Shown piece after piece: positions 2,638-36,891 of a stretch of DNA of 64,000 nt. The translations under genes and the position numbers were made by a program. The notes under the pieces were generated by a model, which was not told the DNA's origin, did no database searches, and worked only from the letters and a program-made list of their open reading frames with translations. Every line of letters starts with the position of its first letter. The stretch's first letter is position 1. The stretch comes from an uncultured Lachnospiraceae bacterium (GTDB taxonomy: Bacteria; Bacillota; Clostridia; Lachnospirales; Lachnospiraceae): contig CANDGI010000003.1 in assembly GCA_947384285.1 (NCBI GenBank), forward strand, positions 1-64,000, in the 5' to 3' direction.

Positions 2638-3477
2638 TTATTCTGCTTCTTCCATATATGCCCTTGCCTGTTCTTCTGTTAAATCAAATTTTTTCTGCAG
2701 TCTTATTATAATTTCTTCATCTAAAAGACGCAAATCTCTGTAAGCAGAAATTGCTCCAAAAACCTTACCGATTTCTTTTCCTATTTTCCTATTTTCCCTG
2801 TCACGCATTAACAACGTCATATACTCATGCCTCCATTCCCGATTCTTCTTCGCCTTTTCCACTGCATGTTTCAGTTTCTTCACAAATGTATCTTCTGATG
2901 GTCTTCCTGCCACATAATCCAGAAACACTTTTAATTCCTTGCTCACAATTCCATTTTTTCCATCTGCATTCAGGAAAACTTTCTTTGCCCCATCATTTAA
3001 TATAACCTCTGACTCTTCTTTACAGACATTCTCAAAGGTATACATATAACGGTTTTTCCCGAATAAGTTTGACAGGCAGATAAAGATAATATAACTATTA
3101 TTTAATGTATCGTAATCCTGCCCTTTATCGATTAACTGCAAATCTATCATGCTTTGGTAGTATCTGCTTCTCTTTGGTAAATATTTCGAGGTAACAGCCT
3201 GCATTTCTATGTTATATACAGTGCCTTTCCCATCATTTACATATACATCCAAACGGACACCCTTTGCATCAAAATCCTCTTTTATTGTCTTTTGCAGTTC
3301 AGGATATTCCACATGGTCAATATCCAAATCCGGCAGAATCCTCTGCAGTAATTCTTTACACAGTTGCGGATTCTGCATGACTTTCCCAAACAGGAAATCA
3401 TTGGATATGCCTAATTCTTCCCAGCTTCTTTGTCTGTCTTCCATACTTTCCATCTGCTCTTTTTCATTGCCATTCAT
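2638..3477 (-). CDS. Rpn-family PD-(D/E)XK nuclease / transposase-like protein
   Basis: The 279-residue product shows the Rpn/transposase_31-type layout: an N-terminal SNDFLFGKVM (25-34), the nuclease core RLDVYV (Asp77) followed by NIEMQ (Glu91, Gln93), RSRYYQSMID (103-112) and a C-terminal helical tail ending in LTEEQARAYMEEAE. Rpn proteins are Mg-dependent DNA nucleases linked to RecA-independent recombination and, in some cases, phage defence. The gene lies alone between the two att-like sites, so it is cargo of the proximal cassette. Active-site residues look intact. The Shine-Dalgarno sequence is weak. It is more A/T-rich than the flanking housekeeping genes. Confidence 0.85.
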   Translation of the reverse strand: MNGNEKEQMESMEDRQRSWEELGISNDFLFGKVMQNPQLCKELLQRILPDLDIDHVEYPELQKTIKEDFDAKGVRLDVYVNDGKGTVYNIEMQAVTSKYLPKRSRYYQSMIDLQLIDKGQDYDTLNNSYIIFICLSNLFGKNRYMYTFENVCKEESEVILNDGAKKVFLNADGKNGIVSKELKVFLDYVAGRPSEDTFVKKLKHAVEKAKKNREWRHEYMTLLMRDRENRKIGKEIGKVFGAISAYRDLRLLDEEIIIRLQKKFDLTEEQARAYMEEAE

Positions 3478-5947: not shown

Positions 5948-8900
5948 TTATAATAATTGGTCAAATAGTGATAACTGGTTGGATTCTGGCAGATTTCCGA
6001 GAATCCCTAAATCCCCCATCAAATCAATGACTGATTTGGACACCTTGGTTCGCTGGCGGAAATCATCTTTTGACAGGAACGGTCCGTCTTTTGCTGCTTC
6101 CACCACTGCCTCAGCCGCTTTATCTCCTAGTCCTTCAATACTGTCCAGTGCCGGCATCAGCTTGCCGTCCACAATCTGGAACGCATGAGCCTGAGCGTCA
6201 AAAAGGTTCAGCGGAACAAATTCAAATCCTCTTGCATACATTTCCTGCACAATCTTCATGTCCTTTACCGTATCCTGCTCTTTTTTCGTCAGGGTGTCTT
6301 TCCTGCGCTCGTAGTCTGCCATGAAATATTCCAGCTTTTCCTTGCCCTGGCACATCAGTTCATAGCTGAAGGATGTGGCGCGGATGCTGAAAAAAGCCGC
6401 ATAATAGGCCAAGGGGTAAAAAATCTTGCAGTAGGCAATCCGCCATGCCATCATAACGTAAGCTGCCGCATGGGCTTTCGGGAACATATATTTGATTTTT
6501 TTGCAGGACCAAATATACCAGTCCGGCACATTGTGCTCTGCCATCACTTCCTCCCACTCAGGCTTTAAGCCTTTTCCCTTTCGAACGCTCTCCATAATCG
6601 TAAAACTTAACTCGCTTTCTATGCCCATTCCAATCAGGTAAGTCATGATATCGTCACGGGTGCAGATTGCTGTGGAGATGGTGGCCTTTCCCTCCTGAAT
6701 CAGGGTCTGGGCATTTCCAAGCCACACGTCCGTCCCGTGGGATAAGCCGGAAATGCGCACCAAATCAGAAAAGGACTGGGGATTGGTGTCAATCAGCATT
6801 TGGATGACAAATTCTGTTCCGAATTCCGGGATGCCAAGGGAGCCCAGCTTGCAGCCCCCGATATCCTCCGGCAGTATCCCAAGAGCCTTGGTGCTCTGGA
6901 ATAAGGACATCACCTCTTTGTCATCCAGAGGAATCTTTTTGGCGTCAATCCCTGTCAAATCCTCCAGCATACGGATCATGGTGGGATCGTCGTGCCCGAG
7001 TATGTCAAGCTTTAACAGGTTGTGGTCAATGGAATGATAGTCAAAATGGGTGGTCACAATGTCCGTGGACATATCATTTGCCGGATGCTGAATGGGCGTG
7101 AAGGAATGGATTTCCTCTCCCAGGGGAAGCACAATGATTCCCCCTGGATGCTGCCCGGTGGTACGGCGGACTCCCACGCATCCCTGGACAATCCGGTCAA
7201 TTTCACAATTCCGTTTCCGCACGCCCCGCTCCTCGTAATAATTGCGGATATAGCCGAAGGCCGTTTTATCTGCCAGCGTGCCGATGGTTCCGGCACGGTA
7301 GGTCTGCCCGTACCCGAAAATCACTTCACAGTAGGCATGGGCTTTGCTCTGGTATTCCCCGGAAAAATTCAAATCGATATCCGGCTCTTTATTTCCCTTA
7401 AATCCCAAAAATGTCTCAAAGGGAATGTCAAACCCTTCTTTTTTCAGGGGTTCCCCACAGTTTGGGCAGATTTTATCCGGCATATCGCACCCGGCGCGTC
7501 CGGCATCTGCATAGGATTTCACTTCCTCTGAGTCAAAGTCGCAATAGTGGCATTTCTTACAGTAATAGTGGGGAGCCAGAGGATTTACCTCGGTAATCCC
7601 CGCCATGGTAGCTACAAAGGAAGACCCTACCGATCCTCGTGAGCCTACCAGATAGCCGTCCTCATTGGATTTCCATACCAGCTTTTGGGCAATAATATAC
7701 ATCACCGCATACCCGTTGCTTATGATGGAATTCAGCTCCCGTTCCAGCCGCTCTTTTACAATGGGCGGAAGCTTATCCCCATAAATCTCATGGGCTTTGT
7801 GGTAGCAGATATCCCGGAGCATCTGGTCAGAATTTTCAATGACAGGAGGGCACTTGTCCGGGCGTACCGGGGAAATCTTTTCACACATATCTGCGATTTT
7901 CCCTGGATTGGTAATCACCACTTCCTCCGCTTTCTCACTGCCCAGGTATTGGAACTCTTCCAGCATTTCCTCCGTGGTGCGAAGGAAAAGAGGCGCCTGG
8001 TTGTCCGCATCCTTAAATCCTTTCCCTGCCATAATAATCCGGCGGTATACCTCATCCTCCGGATCCAGGAAATGCACGTCGCAGGTGGCTACCACTGGTT
8101 TATGGAATTCCTCTCCCAGCCTTACAATCTTTCGGTTTATTTCCATTAACTCTTCCCTGGAGGAAAGGGCAGGGTCATCCCCCCGCAGCATAAATTCATT
8201 ATTTCCAATGGGCTGGATTTCCAGATAATCATAAAAATGCACCAGCCTTGCAATTTCCTCTTCCGGGCTTCCGCGGAAAACTGCCTGGTACAATTCTCCT
8301 GCTTCACAGGCGGAACCAATGAGAAGCCCCTCCCGGTGCTTTAAGAATTCACTTTTGGGGATTCTGGGCTGCCTGTGGAAATAAACCAGATGGGATTGGG
8401 ATACCAGCCGGTAGAGATTGATTCTTCCCGTATCATTGGTGGCAAGGATGATGGCATGATGGCTGGGCAGCTTCTTAATGGTCTCTATGGAGGTATTGCA
8501 AAGGTCATTCACTTCCTCCAGGTTGGAAATCCCTCGTTCCTTCAGCATCTCGATGAACTTTACAAATATTTCCGCGGTACAGGCGGCATCGTCCACGGCC
8601 CGGTGATGGTTTTCCAGGGAAATCTTTAAGGTCTTTGCCACCGTATCCAGCTTAAAGCGGTTCAGCTGGGGCAGCAAAACCCGTGCCAGAGCCACCGTAT
8701 CTATCACCGTATATTCACAGGGAAATCCCTGCTGCTCGCAGTTTTTGCTGATAAAGCTCATGTCAAACCCTGCATTGTGGGCTACCATAATAGCACCTTC
8801 ACAAAATTTTAAAAACTCAGGCAGCGCCTCTTCAATGGTTGGCGCATCCAATACCATATCGTCCCGGATGCCGGTCAGCTCCTCAATCTTAAAAGGAATG

Positions 8901-31752: not shown

Positions 31753-32835
31753 CTAAAGAACCCTATGATTCTCAATCTCTGACGACACAACAGGCATTTC
31801 TGGATACAGCCAGCTATCATTCATTCCATTTTCCAACATTTGCAACGCAACTTTTTGAGGATTTTTTATCAAAATCTGATATAGGCAATCATTTGCCATA
31901 TTGTTATATTCCATCGCATCAGGATTGATCTTGTTTTTTCTCATGTATTGATCATAAGGCCGTTCCTCATAAAAAGGAAACACTGAGAAAACCCCTTTTT
32001 GCGCTTTAATCCTTTCCGAATGATACGGATGCACTACACACAAGGGCGGCAGTTTCCTATCCTTTAACACATAGCCATCGGAATAGATTCTTGCCAGCAA
32101 ATAATAGTACGGATTCACAACATCACCCTTGATTAATAACTCCTTCATCCTGTTTCTGTCACGCAAAAGTTCATCATTAATACTGCTAAGGTTAAAAATA
32201 TAGTCAATATGGCTTGTCTCATCTGTTTGTGAATATACATCAAATTTTCCATATTCCTGGAAATTATTCAGTATTTTGTTCCTGTCCTCTCTCGTAACGT
32301 CTAAATCATTCATCAAGTCTTCCTGCAAGCTTTTATCCTGTTGCAAATACTGCATAATTCTTTTATTTAATGTCTTTGGCAACAACACCCATACACAGGG
32401 AACACATTTTTTCCTGGATTCTTCATTGTATTTATTTCCGTCAAAAAAAGGTTCTAATGCAAATAATAAAGAATGCAGGCTGGATTCGGACCAATCCAAT
32501 ACCCTGGTATTCACCTGATGGTGCTGCATAACCTCCAGCCATTCCACTCTTGAAGATGGCTCTTGCGAAAGCAGATGAAAATTCTTGGCTATGTAATGCT
32601 GTGTGCGAATGTCTTCTGCATAATGAAGCTTCGTATAATTGCCCCTTCCAGCTCCCCTTTTTGCATGGGCTTTTGTCCGAAACAAGGAGGGAACCAGGGA
32701 ATAATCTGCACTGCTTTGCCCCCGGAACCACAATATAGGCGGACTCATGGATGTTTTCAAAGATTGCTGTGCAATTGCTGCAACTCGTTCCATATATGCT
32801 CCCAAACTATCAACACATTCTCTTATGAATGACAT
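31753..32835 (-). CDS. FRG-domain protein
   Basis: The 360-residue protein has the FRG signature: ILWFRGQSSADYSLVPSLFR (34-53), with Phe37-Arg38-Gly39, then EWLEVMQHHQVNTRVLDWSE (98-117) and a hydrophobic helix SLLFALEPF. FRG domains are named for this Phe-Arg-Gly motif; their activity is not well defined, and they recur in phage and defence-associated proteins. The start overlaps the end of the 1,209-residue gene by 13 bp, with GGGGGAG before the ATG, so the two are translated as a coupled pair. The DNA is A/T-rich compared with both flanks. I infer an effector partner of the large protein. Confidence 0.85.
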   Translation of the reverse strand: MSFIRECVDSLGAYMERVAAIAQQSLKTSMSPPILWFRGQSSADYSLVPSLFRTKAHAKRGAGRGNYTKLHYAEDIRTQHYIAKNFHLLSQEPSSRVEWLEVMQHHQVNTRVLDWSESSLHSLLFALEPFFDGNKYNEESRKKCVPCVWVLLPKTLNKRIMQYLQQDKSLQEDLMNDLDVTREDRNKILNNFQEYGKFDVYSQTDETSHIDYIFNLSSINDELLRDRNRMKELLIKGDVVNPYYYLLARIYSDGYVLKDRKLPPLCVVHPYHSERIKAQKGVFSVFPFYEERPYDQYMRKNKINPDAMEYNNMANDCLYQILIKNPQKVALQMLENGMNDSWLYPEMPVVSSEIENHRVL

Positions 32836-35800
32836 TTTTCTCCCCCTATCTGCTGTGCAACACGCCGCTTATTCACATAATACATATTCAGCAAAAATTC
32901 TATGCTGCTGGCATTCATTTTTCCTCTTTTTTCAACATTCTCTTCCAGTAAATACGGCTCATTCTGCAATGCGCCTATCTCTTTACAAAATTCTCCTAAC
33001 TGCCGCACCAGCGGTTCCCCATCCGTGCGCATTTCGCAATTCAAATCTTTCAATTTTCCGATTCCCCTTATATAGTCATCCCGCAACTCTTTGAAATCAT
33101 TAAAATAGTCTATTTGATCCATTCCCTGATCAATCAGCTGTTCCATCATATGCGCCATAATCCCATAAAATTTAATCATTTTACGTTCATATTTGATAGA
33201 AAGATTCTCTTGTGTGAACAGTTCTTTTTCCACATATTTACAATACTCTGCCAATTCTTCCGCTCGATCCAATATGCCAATTACCTGTTTTTCATCTTCC
33301 TCGCTGTCCCATACCAGTGAAATACCTTCCTCATCTGGCAGCCCTCGCAATTCTATACCAAAATCAATCATCCTTTGGCATGTTTTGTGAATCGCCTTTT
33401 CCAGCATCTCAACCAAACTGACACACAATTCCCTGAATTTTTCATAGCTTAATTGCTGCTTGTCATTCAAACACCACTGGAATAGCAATATATTCTGGCT
33501 TCTATTATAATGTGCTCTGGATAATTCCTGGTTGCTTGGCCATCCAATAGCAAGCATATGCATATAACCAAAGGGAGTTAAATTCATGGCATTGCACATA
33601 AACATATCTGCTGTCTCTTCCCGGTATTTTCCAATGCGCCATGCTGCCATCTTCTTCATCCAGTCCATATTTTGGCTAACAACAAATGTAATCTGTTCTT
33701 CAAAAATCCTATAATTTCCCTTTGTATTGCAATCAATGCCCAATGCCCGTCCCATGGATGACAGGAGACTGTCGTAATCAGATGCCAAATCCCTCTGCAT
33801 TCTTTCTCCAGCCCATTCCCTGCACATTTTTTCATATGCTTTTGCTAAAAATTCCGTTCTTTTGTTGTTTTTATAAGTTTTAACTTTTTCATCATTTCCA
33901 CAAAGATCGTAGATCCAGCTGGAAAATTGAAAAAAGTTATTCCAAATTTTTTTATTATTGGTTCCCTCTTTCTCTATTTGCCCAAACGCTTCCTCCCACT
34001 TTTCCTCATATACAAATTTATTTTCATCCATGATCCATTCCCTAAAACCCATACTTTCCCAAACACAGCAAACATCAATGCTTACATTCTGGCACGCACA
34101 TTCCCAGGAAAGGCCATATGCGCATTTAACAATTTGTTCTGACAGTGCCTCCTTGTCCTCCTCAGTTTCCATCTGTCCAATCAGTTCATCCAAAATTGGA
34201 ATAGCATCCGGACACCGGCTGTTATCTGGTTGATAATGATGCACTATTTCTTTTAAAAATGTACAGAGTACAGATTTTAAGTCATTCTTTTGTTCCCACC
34301 TGTCCAAAACATTACATAAATCGCGGCCCAAACAATATTGAAAGTTACTAAGCGGAGCTTCCTGAAAAGAATATTCCAACAAACCGTCCTCATTAATGTA
34401 ATTGGTTTCTAAATATGCTTCTATCAGAGAATCTTCCAAGCTTCTTCCAAAATTATTATTCCAGTCCCTAAGCCCAGTATCATTTTGAAGCTTTTGAATC
34501 AAATTATTTCTGATATCCCTCATAACGGTACGAACCACATGCCTTAGAAGGGCATCATTCCGTACCTTTCTCGGTTCATACCGGAATTGGTGCGCCACCT
34601 CATGGAATAGTGATGTAACCATTGTCCTCACATTCCCAAGCTCCGACAAGGTTGGAACCCTAATAACCAAACAGCTCCTGTCCCCCTTTTGACTCAACTC
34701 TTTTCTAATTTCCTCCTCTTTCGCCCATTCATCCATTACTCCTTTTTGAAAAAGGGTTTCAACAGACAAATCCCTGGAGGATAAAACCGGAACCACAATA
34801 GGAAGATATTCACAAGAGCCCTCTCCACTGACCAGCCCCATTTTTCTTCTTTGATAAAATTCTGTAAACACCTTAAGGAACTCGCTATATCCGATTAATA
34901 ATTTTTCCATGCTCATATTGGATTCAATGTTATAATTTGGAGTCTGCAGTGATTGCAAATTGTTATTTCTTATATACTGGGCATAACCATCCAGGGCACA
35001 GACGGATTCCCTGATATATTCTTCAAGCAGGCAAAGAATTTCTTCATCTTCTTTTGCTCTATGGTACATTTCCACATATACCTCAATGGAATCCATAATA
35101 ACTTCTAACTGTTCCAACAAAACTGCCGCATAAATACGGGTATCAGAAAAACCATTAATTCCATAACAAAGTTTTATTAACTTATCAAGCAAATTCATAT
35201 AATGCCCCATATTTTTAAGATAATCATTAATCCGAATAACTTTATTACGCACTATCTGGCATTTCTTTGCCACTGCATGATACATTTCACCAATTTTATA
35301 ATCCAAAAAATCATTTCTGGATCCCACAGGGGCAGCATAAATCATAGCGCTAATTCTATCTTTGTACAAATCATTCAATTTATCATTATTTTCATCCTGT
35401 GCTACCAAATACCTTTCATTGATATAAGATAAATAATGATGTTTCATTAAATATCTCATATACTTTACAATGCCATCTTCTCCTGATGTTCCGCCTGCCT
35501 CAGCATTTACACTTGCCGCCTGTTTCTTTTTTTGCAGCTGCCTTCCTGTTTCTTTATAAGCTTTTATATCATCCAACAATTCCAAAAACTGTTTTTCTGT
35601 AATGCGGACACTAAAATCATATCTCCCATTCAAACCATATAGCGAAACACCCGAAAGCATATTGTTTTTTTCCAAAAATTCATCAATATTTTCTTTATTG
35701 CTCCAATATAAATTAGAATAACAGCATCTTAAAACAAAACGATCATTCCTAATCACTTTTTCATGTGAATCCTCATTGTTCTCTCTTTGTTCCTCTATCT

Positions 35801-36452
35801 CTTGTCCAATAATATCGCTTCCAAATGTTAAAAGAGTATATGTCTTATACAGAACAATCTTTCCATGGCCAGTTCCCTCCATAATCCTTCTTCTCAACAA
35901 AGAAGATACTTTAAATGAAGTCTCCGCTTCAGCGCTGCGAATCACCACTGCAAAATCACCTGCTGAAAGCATTTTGTATATACGATACACAAATGTACCG
36001 CCTTTACATAACGAAACAAACTCACTTATGGCAGTATGTAAATCTTTATAAACAGCTTCAATAAGTTCTTCTGCAGATTGTTCTCCCAACGCACGGGAAA
36101 AAACTTCTGGTGTTATGTGCACCTGTATGATGCTTAAAAAATAGTTATTTTTATCTTCCAGCAAAAATGGATCTCCGCATTCTTCCCTGTCCTTTTCTAA
36201 TTCCATCATTTCAGAGCTGCAATATAAAGAATAACTTTGGGCAGCCACATCTAAAACATCTATTTTTTCATCCGGCCATATTCCTATGATAGAAGTAAAA
36301 GAAGACGACAATTCTTTCTTTTCCACTTTCATTACATCAAAATAATCTGTTGCAAAGTAGTCACTTTGTTCCGTTTCATCCACGATATTTTTATCATTTT
36401 GATCCCGAATAATTTTCCTCATTAATCGAACAACACGTACATCTGCTCCCAT
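32823..36452 (-). CDS. Large protein with HEVAH zinc-peptidase motif (unknown)
   Basis: I do not recognise this protein as a whole. The 1,209-residue product (start MGADVRVVRLMRKIIRDQND, ATG at 36452 with GAGAGGGGAAGG upstream) contains SLFHEVAHQF, an HExxH zinc motif at residues 617-621. About 325 residues later KYREETADMFMCNAM offers a plausible glutamate third ligand in an ExxxD context. The N-terminal 300 residues look like a repeated alpha/beta unit (YFLSIIQVHITPE, YRIYKMLSAGDFAVVIRS, RYDFSVRITEKQF) and may be a sensor. The middle is long and helical. There is no signal peptide or membrane helix, so it is cytoplasmic. It lies between a 58-residue basic ORF and a coupled FRG-domain gene. 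A frame extending to 36503 lacks a ribosome-binding site. Confidence 0.75.
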   Translation of the reverse strand: MGADVRVVRLMRKIIRDQNDKNIVDETEQSDYFATDYFDVMKVEKKELSSSFTSIIGIWPDEKIDVLDVAAQSYSLYCSSEMMELEKDREECGDPFLLEDKNNYFLSIIQVHITPEVFSRALGEQSAEELIEAVYKDLHTAISEFVSLCKGGTFVYRIYKMLSAGDFAVVIRSAEAETSFKVSSLLRRRIMEGTGHGKIVLYKTYTLLTFGSDIIGQEIEEQRENNEDSHEKVIRNDRFVLRCCYSNLYWSNKENIDEFLEKNNMLSGVSLYGLNGRYDFSVRITEKQFLELLDDIKAYKETGRQLQKKKQAASVNAEAGGTSGEDGIVKYMRYLMKHHYLSYINERYLVAQDENNDKLNDLYKDRISAMIYAAPVGSRNDFLDYKIGEMYHAVAKKCQIVRNKVIRINDYLKNMGHYMNLLDKLIKLCYGINGFSDTRIYAAVLLEQLEVIMDSIEVYVEMYHRAKEDEEILCLLEEYIRESVCALDGYAQYIRNNNLQSLQTPNYNIESNMSMEKLLIGYSEFLKVFTEFYQRRKMGLVSGEGSCEYLPIVVPVLSSRDLSVETLFQKGVMDEWAKEEEIRKELSQKGDRSCLVIRVPTLSELGNVRTMVTSLFHEVAHQFRYEPRKVRNDALLRHVVRTVMRDIRNNLIQKLQNDTGLRDWNNNFGRSLEDSLIEAYLETNYINEDGLLEYSFQEAPLSNFQYCLGRDLCNVLDRWEQKNDLKSVLCTFLKEIVHHYQPDNSRCPDAIPILDELIGQMETEEDKEALSEQIVKCAYGLSWECACQNVSIDVCCVWESMGFREWIMDENKFVYEEKWEEAFGQIEKEGTNNKKIWNNFFQFSSWIYDLCGNDEKVKTYKNNKRTEFLAKAYEKMCREWAGERMQRDLASDYDSLLSSMGRALGIDCNTKGNYRIFEEQITFVVSQNMDWMKKMAAWRIGKYREETADMFMCNAMNLTPFGYMHMLAIGWPSNQELSRAHYNRSQNILLFQWCLNDKQQLSYEKFRELCVSLVEMLEKAIHKTCQRMIDFGIELRGLPDEEGISLVWDSEEDEKQVIGILDRAEELAEYCKYVEKELFTQENLSIKYERKMIKFYGIMAHMMEQLIDQGMDQIDYFNDFKELRDDYIRGIGKLKDLNCEMRTDGEPLVRQLGEFCKEIGALQNEPYLLEENVEKRGKMNASSIEFLLNMYYVNKRRVAQQIGGEKCHS

Positions 36453-36490
36453 AAAGCCTTCCCCTCTCGTATCTTTTATGTCATTGATTA

Positions 36491-36521
36491 AAGCCCGATA
36501 CATAATATACGTACCGGGCTT
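36491..36521 (-). promoter_or_regulatory. Hairpin between the 58-residue ORF and the large gene
   Basis: AAGCCCGATAC (36491-36501) and GTACCGGGCTT (36511-36521) form an 11-bp stem with one wobble and a nine-base loop. It lies just after the small ORF and about 40 bases before the large gene's start. There is no T-run, so it may tune relative expression or RNA stability rather than end transcription. Confidence 0.5.
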
Positions 36522-36529
36522 CCGATGTT

Positions 36530-36706
36530 TTAAATAATCGTTTGCTTTTTTCTCTTACGTCTGCGTCTGCGTAATTCCAAGCCATATCCTTTCCGTAGCG
36601 AATATTCCCTAAGGCTATCCATCGGATTCTGTCCCTCTGGCATTTTCAAATCTCTTGCAGCAAACGTATCAATTATGCGGCTTTTTTCCAATAATCCTGC
36701 ACCCAT
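36530..36706 (-). CDS. 58-residue protein with Arg/Lys-rich tail
   Basis: This short frame begins MGAGLLEKSRIIDTFAARDL and ends with a strongly basic tail, ELRRRRRKRKKQTII. AGGTGG lies nine bases before the ATG. It starts just downstream of a 17-bp perfect palindrome and is the first ORF ahead of the HEVAH protein and FRG genes on the same strand. The tail would bind nucleic acid or an acidic partner. It may be an antitoxin-like or DNA-binding regulator, but no family is recognised and it could still be a chance frame. Confidence 0.5.
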   Translation of the reverse strand: MGAGLLEKSRIIDTFAARDLKMPEGQNPMDSLREYSLRKGYGLELRRRRRKRKKQTII

Positions 36707-36740
36707 TCTATCTACCCACCTATTGTTTTATTAAACTCCC

Positions 36741-36780
36741 AGAGCAAATGGGATATATAGCATTATATCCCATTTGCTCT
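36741..36780. promoter_or_regulatory. Perfect 17-bp palindrome upstream of the FRG cassette
   Basis: AGAGCAAATGGGATATA and its exact complement flank a six-base centre. On the minus strand TATAAT lies inside the palindrome, about 50 bp before the 58-residue ORF, so it may combine a -10 element and an operator. As RNA it would form a strong hairpin that could also end the ppdK transcript, although only a weak U-rich stretch follows on that strand. Confidence 0.6.
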
Positions 36781-36891
36781 TCCTTTATTCGAACATCAAG
36801 GCACAATATTAAAAGCCCTGAACGTATCGATTTATCTAGTACTATTGTAATCCTTTTTTTGCTCTTTTTCAACTACAATCTTAAAAAATTA

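What the first reader, a model, noticed from the sequence alone, without database searches (positions are those of the whole stretch)
31753..36780. Candidate new system: basic mini-protein + giant HEVAH protein + FRG-domain protein
Three same-strand genes form one tight cassette: a 58-residue Arg/Lys-tailed ORF, a roughly 1,209-residue cytoplasmic protein with an HExxH motif and a distant ExxxD glutamate motif, and an FRG-domain protein overlapping it by 13 bp. The cassette is visibly more A/T-rich than both flanks, stands between a sugar locus and ppdK, and begins at a perfect 17-bp palindrome. A large sensor-like protease coupled to a small effector resembles the logic of anti-phage systems. 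FRG domains have been noted in defence contexts. I do not recognise this combination as a described system.
Basis: partly seen in the sequence, partly recalled or inferred. Interest (0 to 1): 0.85.

Follow-up and report, generated by a model that had tools for sequence, protein, structure and literature searches.

The report
Candidate mobile protease and effector cassette
A gut bacterium carries a mobile three-gene unit, made of a small basic protein, a very large predicted metal-dependent protease and a predicted NAD-consuming enzyme; the last two recur together in related bacteria and look like an undescribed immune-type module, although nobody has yet tested what it does.

Summary
Three same-strand genes exist: a 58-aa basic protein, a 1,209-aa HExxH protein and a 360-aa FRG protein overlapping it by 13 bp, in the most A/T-rich 5.1 kb of the window. 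The small ORF is a real gene: two relatives keep it, dN/dS about 0.1. The large protein matches no library model significantly. It occurs at 11 further loci found; an FRG gene follows directly in 12 of 12. HExxH is in 11 of 11 members readable there, ExxAD in 10 of 11; the eleventh, UC5.1-1D2, is frame-broken there. Sites differ, so the unit moves. Partner FRGs carry a ~70-90-residue insertion absent from six lone FRGs aligned. At two loci an NAD/ADP-ribose-type defence gene follows. Best reading: a mobile immune-type module in which the peptidase gates an ART/NADase-type FRG effector, perhaps by proteolysis. Coupling and mobility are supported; both activities, cleavage and defence are inferred.

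The parts
31753..32835 (-). FRG-domain protein, 360 aa; predicted ART-superfamily effector
   Evidence: Pfam FRG PF08867 E 1.1e-17, 65.2 bits against a cut-off of 25; PADLOC PDC-S15 E 1.3e-27; subfamily alignments
32053..32265 (-). approximate insertion in the FRG protein (about residues 191-261) between its two conserved halves
   Evidence: in the alignment present in 10 of 10 partner FRGs and absent from 6 of 6 lone FRGs; 162-176 residues between TRxLDW and the Q..xF motif in 11 of 11 partners measured against 86 in the 4 lone FRGs that could be measured
32823..36452 (-). large HExxH protein, 1,209 aa, predicted zinc metallopeptidase; ORF can be extended to 36503
   Evidence: no significant family match; relatives
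34590..34604 (-). HEVAH motif (residues 634-638 counted from the first ATG)
   Evidence: H, E and H invariant in 7 of 7 aligned members; HExxH in 11 of 11 members where the region can be read
33606..33620 (-). EETAD motif, candidate third zinc ligand (E962) in an ExxAD context
   Evidence: E, A and D invariant in 7 of 7; ExxAD in 10 of 11 members searched by pattern; not found in the UC5.1-1D2 pieces, whose frame breaks there
36490..36522 (-). hairpin between the small gene and the large gene, attenuator-like
   Evidence: 15-pair stem; counterpart in COE1; a different, stronger terminator-like hairpin there in G290
36530..36706 (-). 58-aa basic protein with a C-terminal Arg/Lys tail
   Evidence: homologues upstream of the large gene in COE1 (79% identity) and G290 (66%); dN 0.10, dS 0.87 against COE1
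36741..36780 (.). leader hairpin, perfect 17-bp inverted repeat with 6-nt loop
   Evidence: leader partly conserved in COE1 at a different genomic site

Best explanation
A mobile conflict (most likely anti-phage) module. The large protein is a cytoplasmic zinc metallopeptidase, probably also the sensing or regulatory scaffold. The FRG protein is an ADP-ribosyltransferase-superfamily effector that consumes NAD+ or makes an ADP-ribose-type product. The peptidase holds the effector inactive or, more likely, activates it when infection is sensed, plausibly by cutting the insertion that this FRG subfamily carries; NAD+ loss or an ADP-ribose signal then stops the infected cell. The small basic protein with its downstream hairpin is probably a regulatory or bait component expressed in excess. 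Shown: genes, conservation, linkage, mobility, motifs, insertion. Inferred: both catalytic activities, location in the cell, cleavage, sensing, defence. My split: mobile conflict module about 0.65; FRG is the effector about 0.55; peptidase activates FRG by cleavage about 0.3.
For: FRG follows the large gene in 12 of 12 loci. Distance matrices of the two proteins in 7 loci agree (r = 0.987; 3 of 5040 label permutations as high, the observed one included). HExxH in 11 of 11 readable members, ExxAD in 10 of 11. FRG core motifs are kept. PMC9503650 (passages) places Frg in the ART superfamily, lists it among NAD+-processing signal-generating enzymes, and calls it a potential anti-viral effector that might be a NADase. 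At G002 a bSEFIR protein with a macro-like N-terminus lies 44 bp after FRG and is absent at the same site in G012; at UC5.1-1D2 a ThsA-type macro protein lies about 770 bp downstream. A plasmid-borne shorter FRG lies near AbiH and CBASS genes. [quoted passage not shown]). In UC5.1-1D2 and G020 the large gene is interrupted while FRG stays open, which fits an activator better than an antidote.
Against: No activity, phage phenotype or structure. No solved structure matches either protein significantly by profile. The large protein matches no peptidase model, whole or in pieces, and the 285-424 residues from HExxH to ExxAD are unusually long (recalled comparison). In UC5.1-1D2 ExxAD was not found in the pieces. 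The window's other genes do not look like a defence island (by eye). The large protein was not found in 72,556 plasmid and 50,697 phage records by tblastn. The interrupted large genes could be assembly errors. The shared insertion is not shown to block anything.
Confidence: 0.45

Rival explanations
1. Toxin-antitoxin or element-addiction unit: FRG is the toxin, the small basic protein or the large protein restrains it, and the module mainly maintains itself or its element.
For: Small gene upstream followed by a hairpin, an arrangement that could over-express it (inference); contexts with integrase-like and IS-like genes in G477 and G361 (labels by eye).
Against: Large gene interrupted with FRG still open in 2 loci. 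The conserved small protein was recognised at 3 of the 10 loci inspected while FRG is at all of them.
Confidence: 0.17
2. The metallopeptidase is the effector and FRG the regulator: FRG ADP-ribosylates or otherwise licenses the peptidase, which then degrades phage or host proteins.
For: The two peptidase motifs are among the 23 invariant columns of the large protein and the pair co-varies.
Against: FRG evolves more slowly than the large protein and keeps its motifs; downstream extras at two loci are NAD/ADP-ribose proteins.
Confidence: 0.15
3. FRG makes an ADP-ribose-derived signal, as TIR does in Thoeris, that macro or other downstream effectors read; the module is a signalling core with exchangeable effectors.
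For: PMC9503650 lists Frg among NAD+-processing signal-generating enzymes. ThsA-type macro protein at UC5.1-1D2 and macro-like bSEFIR at G002, the latter missing at the same site in G012.
Against: At 9 of 12 loci the reading of ORFs shows no such gene directly downstream (A65_57, L022, ends about 640 bp after FRG and cannot be judged); at UC5.1-1D2 the gap is about 770 bp; the macro part of the bSEFIR protein is only E 0.024 in Pfam.
Confidence: 0.12
4. Not immunity: a gut-specific stress, competition or regulatory module carried by mobile elements.
For: Rare, and seen only in the window's own class (of these only looked outside the phylum, and with one pattern); housekeeping-like neighbours in the window (by eye).
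Against: Patchy, mobile distribution and defence-type neighbours at three loci.
Confidence: 0.11

Closest known systems
FRG-domain proteins (Pfam PF08867; PADLOC candidate PDC-S15; ART superfamily according to PMC9503650)
   Same: FRG core motifs and Pfam score above cut-off
   Different: this subfamily is about 360-394 aa, against 249-250 aa for four lone FRGs measured and 298 aa for a plasmid one, carries a central insertion and was always found beside the large gene
Protease-activated pro-nuclease pairs in Hachiman, AVAST and canu (PMC12799240; abstract, introduction and Discussion read)
   Same: protease and effector encoded together and co-inherited; effector with an insertion
   Different: HExxH-type large protein instead of trypsin- or caspase-like protease; FRG/ART instead of MBL nuclease; no cleavage shown
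Thoeris (TIR plus ThsA) and bSEFIR
   Same: predicted NAD+/ADP-ribose chemistry; a ThsA-type macro or a bSEFIR gene lies downstream at one locus each
   Different: no TIR or ThsA match in the cassette; FRG and a large HExxH protein form the core
Gluzincin metallopeptidases with HExxH...ExxAD, such as M48 (motif recalled, not tested as a fold)
   Same: HExxH plus a later ExxAD, invariant in the 7 members aligned
   Different: no Pfam match; 285-424 residues between the motifs; about 1,140-1,460 aa

Membership tests
FRG domain (PF08867) | profile match above the curated cut-off | tested here: met
   65.2 bits against 25, residues 35-128
FRG domain (PF08867) | core motifs xRG, QH...TRxLDW and Q..xF shared with lone FRGs | tested here: met
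   alignment of 10 partner and 6 lone FRGs; lone L047 departs at DW. Of 8 lone FRGs fetched, L046 failed the ORF filter and L042 (at a contig start) was left out
ART superfamily | ART fold with NAD+ pocket | not testable with these tools
   structure prediction switched off; superfamily assignment taken from PMC9503650 passages
Zinc metallopeptidase (gluzincin type) | HExxH with a conserved downstream acidic ligand | tested here: met
   HExxH 11 of 11 readable, ExxAD 10 of 11 (UC5.1-1D2 frame-broken there); invariant in 7 of 7 aligned
Zinc metallopeptidase (gluzincin type) | match to a known peptidase family model | tested here: not met
   no significant match in Pfam, NCBIfam, PADLOC or PHROGs
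Zinc metallopeptidase (gluzincin type) | fold bringing the ligands together | not testable with these tools
Nuclease-protease pairs (Hachiman, AVAST, canu) | trypsin- or caspase-like protease with an MBL-type pro-nuclease | tested here: not met
   no such domain matched in the three cassette proteins
Nuclease-protease pairs (Hachiman, AVAST, canu) | effector insertion that blocks the active site until cut | tested here: inconclusive
   insertion present; blocking and cutting not tested
Thoeris | TIR protein plus ThsA | tested here: not met
   no TIR or ThsA match in the cassette; a ThsA-type macro protein at one related locus
Anti-phage defence system | protection against phage | not tested
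   needs the bench
Toxin-antitoxin | toxic gene neutralised by its neighbour | tested here: inconclusive
   interrupted large gene beside open FRG in 2 loci argues against the large protein as antidote; the small protein is untested

The most novel reading that the evidence does not exclude
A new immune system type: a giant HExxH metallopeptidase of an undescribed family senses infection and cuts the insertion of a dedicated FRG pro-enzyme, unleashing NAD+ destruction or an ADP-ribose signal. It would be a metallopeptidase-gated ART zymogen, unlike the trypsin- and caspase-activated nucleases of PMC12799240, with macro or SEFIR effectors as optional add-ons.
Probability: 0.27. Interest if true: 0.85.

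Novelty: new variant of a known kind. Interest (0 to 1): 0.66.

Why it matters
Tuck et al. [quoted passage not shown] This cassette shows protease-effector linkage and an insertion (blocking untested), with a large protein that no library used here describes. If the mechanism is right, it extends protease-gated immunity to metallopeptidases and to NAD+-targeting effectors, and gives the FRG domain, whose NADase role is put only as a possibility in the one paper seen (PMC9503650, passages), a testable partner.

Tried and rejected
Considered and dropped: (1) Small ORF as chance. Rejected: homologues and dN/dS. A first tblastn of it in 61 genomes gave, besides its own genome, two weak hits, one with stops inside, so that search alone would have misled. 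(2) G601 as a relative. Rejected on context: the matched stretch lies across ordinary genes and no large HExxH protein is there. G349 (E 9.6e-4, 78 profile positions, 245-aa frame) was not followed and is not counted. (3) Known peptidase family. Pieces of the large protein at E up to 10 gave nothing convincing; best was DUF6913 at 0.002, below its cut-off; MLKL_N, EAD4 and Tox-MPTase2 (a metallopeptidase toxin) at 0.01-0.04, each in a single member, are too weak to use. (4) N-terminal part as tandem ferredoxin-like sensor domains: a reading by eye of LSAGDFAVV and GLNGRYDFSV patterns; Pfam gave no support; not claimed. (5) Leader hairpin as a mobile-element end: no convincing flanking direct repeat; not claimed. 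(6) Promoter scan: 19 found against 19.3 expected by chance, so uninformative. (7) Presence on phages or plasmids: none for the large protein; FRG only as partial, distant matches covering at most 44% of the query in the rows listed, none in viral contigs; none for the small protein in phages. (8) Rfam and tRNA: nothing in the window.
Full report
WHAT IS THERE. On the minus strand, in transcription order, lie a leader with a perfect 17-bp inverted repeat (36741-36780), a 58-aa basic ORF (36530-36706), a second hairpin (36490-36522), a large gene (36452 to 32823, 1,209 aa; longer ORF to 36503) and an FRG gene (32835 to 31753, 360 aa), the last two overlapping by 13 bp. The start at 36452 follows GAGGGGAAGG and matches the start of the COE1 homologue. 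GC over 31753-36890 is 0.375; the rest of the window is 0.460; of 58,863 equal-length stretches 19 are lower, all starting within about 20 bases.

FAMILIES. FRG: Pfam E 1.1e-17, 65.2 bits against a cut-off of 25; PADLOC candidate PDC-S15 E 1.3e-27; PHROG 4962 (unknown function) E 7.5e-20. Large protein: no significant match in Pfam, NCBIfam, PADLOC or PHROGs, nor for six further members in Pfam or four in PADLOC, nor by pieces, nor in solved structures by profile (one hit at E 4.4). The FRG profile also found no solved relative (best E 0.27). Small protein: no family match.

RELATIVES. tblastn of the large protein: 4 of 99 relative genomes, the window's own included. Profile searches, the window's genome being one of the hits in each: 4 of 397 family genomes; 3 of 391 class genomes, one of which, G601, I reject; 1 of 299 phylum genomes; 2 of 383 order genomes, one of which, G349, is weak and was not followed. 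The draws overlap. No relative in viral contigs, 72,556 plasmids or 50,697 phages. This makes 12 loci: window, A65_57 (L022), COE1 (L024), G290 (L016), UC5.1-1D2 (L025), G361 (L017), G249 (L018), G016 (L005), G020 (L006), G002 (L007), G012 (L048, only the C-terminal end at a contig start) and G477 (L033). COE1 and A65_57 are nearly identical, so about 11 are independent. Named ones are Lachnospiraceae or 'Clostridia bacterium'; G477 is of the window's class but another family.

LINKAGE. An FRG gene directly follows the large gene on the same strand in 12 of 12. The converse: with the FRG profile, 12 of 145 relative genomes, the own included, had a match at E 1e-10 or better; 5 are full-length partner type (over 470 bits) and all 5 adjoin a large gene (G012 through its C-terminal end). 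The other 7 score 42-60 bits and are partial or shorter; the context of 3 of these 7 was read and no large HExxH protein is there. Pairwise distances of the two proteins in 7 loci correlate at r = 0.987, with 3 of 5040 label permutations as high, the observed one included; this shows co-inheritance, not contact.

THE CATALYTIC MOTIFS. In 7 aligned large proteins (the others at 17-57% identity to the window) H634, E635, H638, R648, N649, E962, A965, D966, M969, Y980 and R1001 are among 23 invariant columns. By pattern, HExxH is in 11 of 11 members in which the region is readable (G012 is not). ExxAD is in 10 of these 11; in UC5.1-1D2, whose large gene is interrupted, the pattern was not found in the two pieces around that place, and the frame breaks there. 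This is the ligand pattern of a gluzincin-type zinc peptidase (recalled). The spacing, 328 residues in the window and 285-424 in the family, is unusual, so peptidase activity is likely but inferred.

THE SMALL GENE. Homologues lie upstream of the large gene in COE1 (79% identity) and G290 (66%); dN 0.10 and dS 0.87 for window against COE1, that is dN/dS about 0.12; synonymous sites are saturated against G290. Ten loci with at least 750 bp upstream were read: three carry this family, G361 has a small ORF that looks similar by eye only, G016 and G020 share a different one, G002 and G249 have their own, UC5.1-1D2 and G477 show none that stands out. Between small and large gene, window and COE1 share a hairpin and G290 has a different, terminator-like one; no such hairpin passed the scan in that place in G016, G020, G002, G361 or G477. 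I infer a regulatory or stoichiometry role.

MOBILITY. Window-COE1 homology is contiguous over 31763-36890 (74.7%) and stops two bases short of ppdK, and COE1 has other neighbours. G290, of another genus, also has the unit beside ppdK. Of 22 other same-genus genomes with a ppdK match, 17 have at least 950 bases downstream and by their ORFs 0 of 17 carry the unit there; the contents vary and include ParA-like and transposase-like ORFs by my reading. The five with under 450 bases were dropped. In the six relatives with a match, the YesL-like gene has other neighbours. G477's unit lies within about 8 kb of integrase-like and relaxase-like genes, G361's near IS-type genes (labels by my reading).

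DEFENCE-TYPE COMPANY. Four neighbour proteins, picked by eye, were scanned against PADLOC. G002: 44 bp after FRG lies a protein with PADLOC bSEFIR E 4e-51, Pfam TIR_2 3.6e-11 and a macro-like N-terminus (Pfam Macro 0.024, below cut-off); G012 has the same flank without it. UC5.1-1D2: a ThsA_Macro protein (Pfam 4.2e-12; PADLOC ThsA 6.7e-13) about 770 bp after FRG, then a TPR protein (weak PDC-S31). G016: DUF4007, PADLOC SspB E 9.9e-45, about 1 kb on the upstream side. Apart from this, a Klebsiella plasmid FRG (298 aa) lies near AbiH and CBASS genes. Against this reading, the window's own neighbourhood looks like housekeeping and 9 of 12 loci show no such gene directly after FRG.

THE INSERTION. 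Between TRxLDW and the Q..xF motif, 11 of 11 partner FRGs measured have 162-176 residues (G249 corrected after a false anchor; A65_57 not measured), against 86 in the 4 lone FRGs that could be measured. In an alignment of 10 partner and 6 lone FRGs the difference is a block at about window residues 191-261, present in all 10 and absent from all 6; two of the six, L047 and L083, are more divergent and align less surely. Of 8 lone FRGs fetched, L046 failed my filter and L042 was left out.

MECHANISM. PMC9503650 (passages found by term) puts Frg in the ART superfamily, lists it among NAD+-processing signal-generating enzymes, and calls it a potential anti-viral effector that might function as a NADase; the primary paper it cites is not held. 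[quoted passage not shown]). The cassette shows linkage and an insertion. In two loci the large gene is interrupted while FRG stays open, easier to reconcile with an activating than a protecting large protein, unless these are assembly errors. Hence the best reading: peptidase-gated FRG effector. Steps not shown: catalysis by either protein, cleavage, what is sensed, protection.

NOVELTY. No described system with this combination turned up in the listings of nine paper searches (one search listed 15 of 28), which cover only openly licensed papers, nor in PADLOC 2023; later or closed literature may hold it. I rate it a new variant of a known kind: the logic is known, the large protein family and the pairing appear undescribed.

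Noticed in passing
L007 4974-5972 (G002): Macro-like plus bSEFIR protein 44 bp after the FRG gene, missing at the same site in G012: an optional add-on that may be an ADP-ribose-responsive effector.
   Followed up: partly
L025 7268-11151 (UC5.1-1D2): ThsA-type macro protein followed by a TPR protein with weak DUF2971/PDC-S31 similarity, downstream of the cassette.
   Followed up: partly
window 36700-36890: The downstream flank of ppdK looks like a variable site in this genus: ParA-like, transposase-like and other ORFs in different genomes (labels by eye).
   Followed up: partly
window 36741-36835 and L024 6600-6750: Leader of window and COE1 shares a GATACGTTCAGGGCTTT-like segment whose parts could pair with arms of the hairpin before the large gene; a possible antiterminator, read by eye.
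   Followed up: no
L024 2193-2555 and 11940-12377: Similar sequences on both sides of the cassette in COE1, also downstream in L022; perhaps an interspersed repeat (read by eye from the translations).
   Followed up: no
L005 and L006, about 490 bp upstream of the large gene: G016 and G020 share a different small ORF (58-63 aa, acidic by eye) in the leader region.
   Followed up: no
window 2638-3477: A/T-rich ORF (GC 0.37, 279 aa) in a housekeeping-like stretch; looks like a Rpn/PD-(D/E)XK-type transposase-like protein by eye.
   Followed up: no
L083 7007-14516 (Klebsiella plasmid pSCLC9-2_3): Shorter FRG gene (annotated 7007-7897) near AbiH and CBASS genes, with an IS4-type element between FRG and AbiH.
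   Followed up: no
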